64,000 nucleotides of DNA, from IMG/VR virus record IMGVR_UViG_3300021178_000012, positions 1-64,000 of that record; one strand, given 5' to 3'. A program made the position numbers and the translations under genes. This DNA is from a virus. Position 1 is the stretch's first letter. Each line of letters begins with the position of its first letter. Below are positions 27,301-27,424 of the stretch, piece after piece. The notes under the pieces were generated by a model, which saw only the letters and a program-made list of their open reading frames with translations, searched no databases and was not told where the DNA came from.

Positions 27301-27424
27301 ATTAGGTAAGTGGCGCCCGTTGGTAAAACGACGTCTTTCGACGTACGTGTGTGGGTTTCGAACCACTCGGTCAGCCTTTCGGCCTTCCTTTTTTCCAAGG
27401 TTAACCAACGAACATCGACCCAAT
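27301..27424 (-). ncRNA. YrlA-like Y RNA with internal tRNA-mimic domain, Y2
   Basis: 124 bases. Lower stem ATTGGGT/ACCTAAT, internal loop around CGA, then TGTT and CGTTGGT pairing with GGCG and ACCAACG: the Ro60-binding helix. Between the two strands lie four hairpins: CCTT-GGAAAA-AAGG (27387-27400, D-arm-like with GG in the loop), GGCC-GAAA-GGCT (27373-27384), GTGG-TTCGAAAC-CCAC (27351-27366, T-arm-like) and ACGTC-TTTCGACGT (27331-27344 as read on the plus strand, GAAA loop on the RNA). Bacterial YrlA RNAs are known to carry just such a D-arm/T-arm mimic. Located six bases after the tRNA-like RNA. Confidence 0.75.

What the first reader, a model, noticed from the sequence alone, without database searches (positions are those of the whole stretch)
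27301..27424. Y2 carries a tRNA-mimic domain like bacterial YrlA RNAs
Between the strands of the Ro60-binding helix lie a D-arm-like hairpin with GG in its loop, an anticodon-arm-like hairpin with a GAAA loop, and a T-arm-like hairpin with UUCGAAA. YrlA RNAs have a D-arm/T-arm mimic in this place. The T-stem has only four pairs, and an extra hairpin ACGUC-GAAA-GACGU follows it.
Basis: partly seen in the sequence, partly recalled or inferred. Interest (0 to 1): 0.8.

Follow-up and report, generated by a model that had tools for sequence, protein, structure and literature searches.

The report
Ro60-bound Y RNA with tRNA remnant
Beside its gene for the Ro60 RNA-quality-control protein, this phage carries a row of Ro60-binding "Y" RNAs; the one flagged keeps only part of a tRNA look-alike, while its neighbour is an apparently undescribed and widespread chimera, a whole tRNA body whose decoding arm has been replaced by the Ro60-binding helix.

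Summary
The hairpins exist, on the minus strand, inside a real Ro60-binding helix next to a Ro60 (TROVE + vWA) gene, so "Y2" is very probably a Y RNA. The tRNA-mimic claim is only partly right. Y2 has a T-arm-like hairpin (GUGG-UUCGAAAC-CCAC; chance p about 0.014; loop one base too long). The GG-loop "D-arm" is chance-level (p about 0.76). In YrlA the tRNA module is circularly permuted: T-arm, closed acceptor hairpin, D-arm. Of 61 related long Y RNAs with a T-arm, 57 have a hairpin next and one has a D-arm-like hairpin first. Y2 fails the Rfam YrlA model. It looks like a D-arm-less YrlA derivative.

The larger finding lies next door. RNA 27431-27548 is a complete tRNA body (acceptor, D-arm, T-arm) with the Ro60-binding helix in place of the anticodon arm, an un-permuted YrlA. 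At least 27 such hairpin-closed chimeras, with strong covariation, lie beside Ro60 genes in phages and several bacterial phyla; none is described in the literature I could search. Y2 lies between this RNA and tRNA-Asn, so tRNA-processing enzymes would cut it out (inferred).

The parts
27624..29312 (-). Ro60/Rsr gene, 562 aa, TROVE + Ro60 vWA domain, first gene of the cluster
   Evidence: Pfam vWA_Ro60 2.8e-61 and TROVE 8.6e-51; phmmer 1e-118 to Xenopus Ro60 1YVP; DVSGSM metal-site motif intact
27558..27612 (-). minimal Y RNA, 12 nt after the Ro60 stop codon
   Evidence: Y-helix model R1, 23.5 bits, E 0.067 in 674 kb, 5.9e-5 locally
27431..27548 (-). RNA-A: tRNA-Y chimera, a tRNA body (acceptor, D-arm, T-arm) with a hairpin-closed Ro60-binding helix in place of the anticodon arm
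   Evidence: Rfam tRNA 37.2 bits with a 54-nt insert; not called by ARAGORN; family of 26-29 with covariation
27301..27424 (-). Y2: Y RNA whose Ro60-binding helix encloses four hairpins
   Evidence: fold z -2.42; helix score 32.1 against null maximum 29.2
27400..27424 (-). Y2 Ro60-binding helix, 5' strand AUUGGGUCGAUGUUCGUUGGUUAAC (ends with the conserved GGUUA)
27301..27324 (-). Y2 Ro60-binding helix, 3' strand ACCAACGGGCGCCACUUACCUAAU (ACUU conserved)
   Evidence: pre-T hairpins also in L051 and L075
27351..27366 (-). hairpin 3 GUGG-UUCGAAAC-CCAC, T-arm-like, 8-nt loop or bulged C
   Evidence: p 0.014 against shuffles; aligns with the T-arm of a YrlA-type RNA in L075
27328..27348 (-). hairpin 4 ACG.UACGUC-GAAA-GACGUCGU, at the acceptor-hairpin position of YrlA
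27216..27289 (-). tRNA-Asn(GUU), 11 nt downstream of Y2
   Evidence: ARAGORN; Rfam tRNA 62.6 bits
27154..27207 (-). minimal Y RNA, paralogue of Y2's helix without its insert
   Evidence: Rfam RF01656 nematode sbRNA 43.5 bits, above its cut-off of 38; R1 56 bits, but its row is in the R1 alignment

Best explanation
Y2 is a Ro60-binding Y RNA made from an RNA array directly downstream of the phage's own Ro60 gene. Ro60 holds the conserved helix; the four-hairpin head is an effector module derived from the permuted tRNA mimic of YrlA, of which the T-arm-like hairpin and the acceptor-position hairpin remain and the D-arm is lost. The head probably recruits or gates a partner RNase or other tRNA-recognising protein, as YrlA and the Deinococcus Y RNA do with PNPase. 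The array alternates Y RNAs with tRNA-like RNAs (minimal Y, tRNA-Y chimera, Y2, tRNA-Asn, minimal Y; gaps of 6 to 11 nt), so RNase Z cutting at the end of the chimera and RNase P cutting at the start of tRNA-Asn would release Y2. Shown by computation: Ro60 gene, Y helix, hairpins, array order, un-permuted chimera family. Inferred: Ro60 binding, processing, partner, descent of the head from YrlA.
For: Ro60 gene next door. Y helix above the null with its constant positions. T-arm-like hairpin p 0.014. T-arm in 76 of 114 long inserts against 0.76 expected; order T-arm then hairpin in 57 of 61, D-arm-like hairpin first in 1. D-less T-arm + hairpin Y RNAs exist elsewhere: L074, L105, L142, L150, L165. 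Y2's hairpins 3-4 align with T-arm + acceptor hairpin of a YrlA-type RNA in L075, score 35 against a shuffled 95% point of 30 and maximum of 36; the neighbouring L075 RNA 4931-5034 has three hairpins and no D-arm. Minimal Y RNAs within 25 nt of a tRNA-like RNA: 28 of 130, 1.5 expected.
Against: The T-loop is one base too long; all but one of the other T-arms whose loop was listed have 7. No close homologue of Y2 was found, so its own hairpins have no covariation support. Looser T-like hairpins are not enriched in the Y RNAs without a strict T-arm (2 against 1.9 expected). Nothing shows transcription, processing or Ro60 binding.
Confidence: 0.6

Rival explanations
1. Y2 is a Ro60-bound Y RNA whose four hairpins have no tRNA ancestry: a lineage-specific protein- or RNA-binding head in which UUCGAAA arose by chance.
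For: p 0.014 is modest and the T-loop is imperfect. Several long Y RNAs carry plain hairpin clusters without a T-arm, e.g. L081, L120, L132, L149. Two of Y2's four hairpins end in GAAA tetraloops.
Against: T-arms are the rule in long Y RNAs (76 of 114 against 0.76 expected); Y2's T-arm stands directly before a hairpin, as in YrlA, and aligns with a YrlA-type RNA.
Confidence: 0.3
2. One reading: a full tRNA mimic in ordinary order (D-arm, anticodon arm, T-arm) inside the Ro60 helix, a YrlA-like RNA.
For: Three hairpins occur in that order, the first has GG in its loop and the third has UUCGAAA.
Against: A GG-loop hairpin is chance-level (p 0.76); one of 61 comparable RNAs with a T-arm has a D-arm-like hairpin before it; no A14, A21 or U8; no YrlA match even at E 10.
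Confidence: 0.05
3. Y2 is decayed sequence left by recombination between array members.
For: Its Ro60 helix is nearly the same as that of the minimal Y RNA 27154-27207, so the two are probably duplicates (sequence); no close relative found.
Against: The two copies differ on both strands yet both helices still pair; fold z -2.42; the gaps to RNA-A (6 nt) and tRNA-Asn (11 nt) are as tight as elsewhere in such arrays.
Confidence: 0.05

Closest known systems
YrlA (Rfam RF02553; Salmonella, mycobacteria, actinophages)
   Same: Ro60-binding helix outside, T-arm followed by an acceptor-position hairpin, gene next to Ro60
   Different: Y2 has no D-arm, its T-loop is 8 nt, it has two extra hairpins before the T-arm and no match to the Rfam model. 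RNA-A is the un-permuted form: ordinary tRNA ends, Ro60 helix closed by a hairpin loop
Deinococcus Y RNA of the RYPER complex (Ro60-Y RNA-PNPase)
   Same: Ro60-binding helix plus an effector head that is not a standard tRNA mimic (literature; sequence not compared here)
   Different: Partner of the phage RNA unknown; no sequence similarity tested
Nematode stem-bulge RNAs (RF01656) and vertebrate Y RNAs
   Same: 27154-27207 scores above the RF01656 cut-off; same helix motif with bulged C and conserved AACUU
   Different: Minimal RNA of 54 nt; bacterial and phage origin
Permuted tmRNA and permuted tRNA genes
   Same: tRNA body re-cut at a new pair of ends (knowledge, not tested here)
   Different: Here both permutations of one tRNA-Y architecture occur beside Ro60 genes

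Membership tests
Y RNA (Ro60 ligand), for Y2 | Ro60-binding helix with bulged pyrimidine, conserved GGUUA and ACUU | tested here: met
   Score 32.1 against null maximum 29.2 in 383 kb; C6, G7, GGUUA and ACUU present, but UUAAC instead of UUAYC and CACUU instead of AACUU
Y RNA (Ro60 ligand), for Y2 | Encoded near Ro60 | tested here: met
   About 200 nt downstream of the TROVE/vWA gene, same strand
Y RNA (Ro60 ligand), for Y2 | Bound by Ro60 in the cell | not testable with these tools
   Needs pull-down
YrlA (RF02553), for Y2 | Score at or above the Rfam cut-off of 69 bits | tested here: not met
   No match to Y2 at E up to 10. The phage's actinophage relatives also fall below the cut-off, 24-52 bits
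YrlA (RF02553), for Y2 | T-arm mimic, 5-bp stem and 7-nt UUCRAnn loop | tested here: inconclusive
   UUCGA present, p 0.014, but 4 bp and 8-nt loop
YrlA (RF02553), for Y2 | Closed acceptor-type hairpin directly after the T-arm | tested here: met
   Hairpin 4, 8 bp with one bulge, 2 nt after hairpin 3
YrlA (RF02553), for Y2 | D-arm mimic with GG after the acceptor hairpin | tested here: not met
   Only UUUU between hairpin 4 and the Ro60 helix
YrlA (RF02553), for Y2 | Modified by TruB and DusA | not testable with these tools
   Reported for Salmonella YrlA (PMC8394870)
tRNA, for RNA-A 27431-27548 | Acceptor stem, D-arm and T-arm | tested here: met
   Rfam tRNA 37.2 bits; pairs covary in 29 relatives
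tRNA, for RNA-A 27431-27548 | Anticodon arm | tested here: not met
   Replaced by the Ro60-type hairpin; ARAGORN makes no call
Un-permuted YrlA (tRNA-Y chimera), for RNA-A | Ro60 helix closed by a short hairpin loop inside an ordinary tRNA body | tested here: met
   4-nt loop CTCG; UUACC present

The most novel reading that the evidence does not exclude
Ro60 systems use a second, un-permuted form of the YrlA tRNA mimic: true tRNA bodies, with RNase P/Z ends and in some genomes an encoded CCA, whose anticodon arm is a hairpin-closed Ro60-binding helix. These chimeras also punctuate the transcript so that tRNA-processing enzymes release the Y RNAs between them, Y2 included; Y2 is a D-arm-less derivative of the same mimic.
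Probability: 0.5. Interest if true: 0.78.

Novelty: new variant of a known kind. Interest (0 to 1): 0.62.

Why it matters
Bacterial Y RNAs are known as minimal tethers or as circularly permuted tRNA mimics. Both permutations of one tRNA-Y design, sometimes in one array, would show how the mimic arose and would give Ro60 a ligand with a genuine tRNA 3' end. That makes a long-open question, what the tRNA-like head of Y RNAs is for, testable with RNAs that can be processed, CCA-tailed and modified like tRNAs. Annotation programs read these genes as poor tRNAs or miss them.

Tried and rejected
Exact-pattern searches for Y2's helix and T-arm in viral contigs found nothing; blastn against phages found only tRNA-like matches; a protein search with the exonuclease/AAA protein gave no sister phage. 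The YrlA match at 27500-27638 (18 bits) is not a YrlA: it is driven by the D-arm of RNA-A. Pairing the minimal Y 5' strand at 27612 with the 3' strand inside RNA-A at 27491 scores 38 to 40 but joins two RNAs; the same artefact occurs in L099-L103. Considered and rejected: RNA-A as two halves of neighbouring permuted YrlA RNAs. The Ro60 strands are joined by 3-8 nt in nearly all strict cases, and in the window no second T-arm lies upstream and no D-arm downstream. About 40 of 69 model hits above 60 bits failed my strict hairpin check and are not counted; some may be tandem YrlA arrays. RtcB was not found in the record.

Full report
What is there. The feature lies on the minus strand of an IMG/VR virus record of 83,579 bases, directly downstream of a 562-aa gene with TROVE and Ro60 vWA domains that matches Xenopus and human Ro60 and Deinococcus Rsr over its length. 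The order is Ro60 (27624-29312), minimal Y RNA (27558-27612), RNA-A (27431-27548), Y2 (27301-27424), tRNA-Asn (27216-27289), minimal Y RNA (27154-27207), with gaps of 6 to 11 nt between the RNAs. The last RNA scores above the Rfam cut-off for nematode stem-bulge RNAs, relatives of Y RNAs. The nearest cellular Ro60 proteins are in Polyangiales (Sorangium 59%, Minicystis and Polyangium 55-56%), so the host may be of that group (inference).

Check of the observation. The fold of Y2 shows the four hairpins inside the helix as described. I aligned 25 minimal Y RNAs from Ro60 loci, built a model (R1) and found such RNAs beside Ro60 in many of the 176 loci searched. Scored by the same alignment, the Y2 helix reaches 32.1 against a best of 29.2 in 383 kb of randomised sequence. 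R1 itself does not report Y2, because its insert is long.

The tRNA-mimic claim. Among 114 long inserts of Y RNAs in these loci, 76 contain a strict T-arm where 0.76 are expected; the set includes some composite hits and near-copies from related strains. Of 93 non-composite ones, 61 have a T-arm, 57 have a hairpin straight after it, 35 then a recognisable D-arm, and one has a D-arm-like hairpin before the T-arm. This is the permuted YrlA order seen in the Rfam alignment and in structure 6CU1 (PMC11472068). Y2's third hairpin is T-arm-like (p 0.014) and its fourth is at the acceptor position; nothing stands at the D-arm position. The GG-loop hairpin is chance-level (p 0.76). Y RNAs with a T-arm and a following hairpin but no D-arm occur elsewhere (L074, L105, L142, L150, L165). 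The best local match of Y2's insert among 122 candidates is the T-arm plus acceptor hairpin of a YrlA-type RNA in L075 (score 35; shuffled 95% point 30, maximum 36). The T-arm of Y2 is nevertheless imperfect, and no close homologue was found, so its ancestry is likely rather than shown.

The neighbouring RNA. RNA-A was first seen as a tRNA match with a 54-nt insert. The same kind of match, 120 to 134 nt long, lies just downstream of Ro60 in L019, L099, L101, L102, L103 and L109. The insert is a hairpin with the Ro60 motif in reversed strand order: AACUU-GCCCG-loop-CGGGC-CG...GGUUACC. A structural scan found 26 such RNAs. In 29 sequences aligned to a model of the family (R2), 91.6% of cells pair against 71.4% after shuffling, 25 of 30 pairs show changes on both sides, and sliding the partner by one to three columns destroys this. 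The alignment is fitted to the structure and pairing was part of the scan's selection, so the counts are biased upward; the initial tRNA matches were not selected for the insert. In five whole genomes with the chimera, the best R2 hits lie at the Ro60 locus. Of 69 hits above 60 bits, 28 pass a strict test of a short closing loop and one of these (L167) looks spurious; 26 of the 28 have the UUAYC-type motif. In Desulfonema (L147) and a few others a CCA follows the acceptor stem; the count of 7 may include chance CCA.

How it most likely works. Ro60 binds each Y helix. Residues at the Y RNA surface (K171, R175, H188 by alignment) are conserved in the phage protein (their role in Xenopus Ro60 is from memory). 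Known bacterial Y RNAs tether Ro60 to PNPase and gate substrate entry (PMC8394870; PMC4726728). The phage array would supply several heads: none (minimal), partial mimic (Y2), full tRNA body (RNA-A). Minimal Y RNAs lie within 25 nt of a tRNA-like RNA in 28 of 130 cases against 1.5 expected; in L021 the order is Y, chimera, Y, chimera, Y. This fits release of Y RNAs by tRNA processing. A role in protecting or repairing tRNAs is possible: the phage encodes an RNA ligase (phrog_548; PF09414), and YrlA has been proposed as a decoy for an anticodon nuclease (PMC7790460). This is inference.

Known or new. Phage Ro60 genes are common (343 phage records) and YrlA-type RNAs occur beside them. No paper in the searchable library describes the un-permuted chimera, but the key Y RNA papers are not held. 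I rate Y2 alone as a variant of YrlA with modest interest; the chimera family raises the score.

Noticed in passing
window 27431-27548 (-); L019, L020, L021, L023, L025, L070, L072, L099-L103, L106, L109, L110, L129, L134, L144, L147, L150, L168: tRNA bodies whose anticodon arm is replaced by a hairpin-closed Ro60-binding helix, beside Ro60 genes in phages and several phyla.
   Followed up: yes
L179 (Polyangium C22:146432-146825, two copies) and L180 (Sorangium 4251864-4251997): tRNA-bodied RNAs of the same outline but with a different long hairpin (UUCUCCGGC...GCAGUGA...GGUUAC), no Ro60 within the fetched 10 kb and 5 kb stretches; ARAGORN calls one tRNA-Arg.
   Followed up: partly
window 27558-27612 (-): A further minimal Y RNA 12 nt after the Ro60 stop codon.
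   Followed up: yes
window 40814-41674 (+): RNA ligase (phrog_548, PF09414) in the same phage as Ro60; no RtcB found in the record.
   Followed up: partly
L004 2012-2074 and L011 4991-5047: Pistol ribozymes close to Ro60 genes in two phages.
   Followed up: no
L021 4142-4608: Strictly alternating array: minimal Y, tRNA-Y, minimal Y, tRNA-Y, minimal Y, gaps 8-13 nt.
   Followed up: yes
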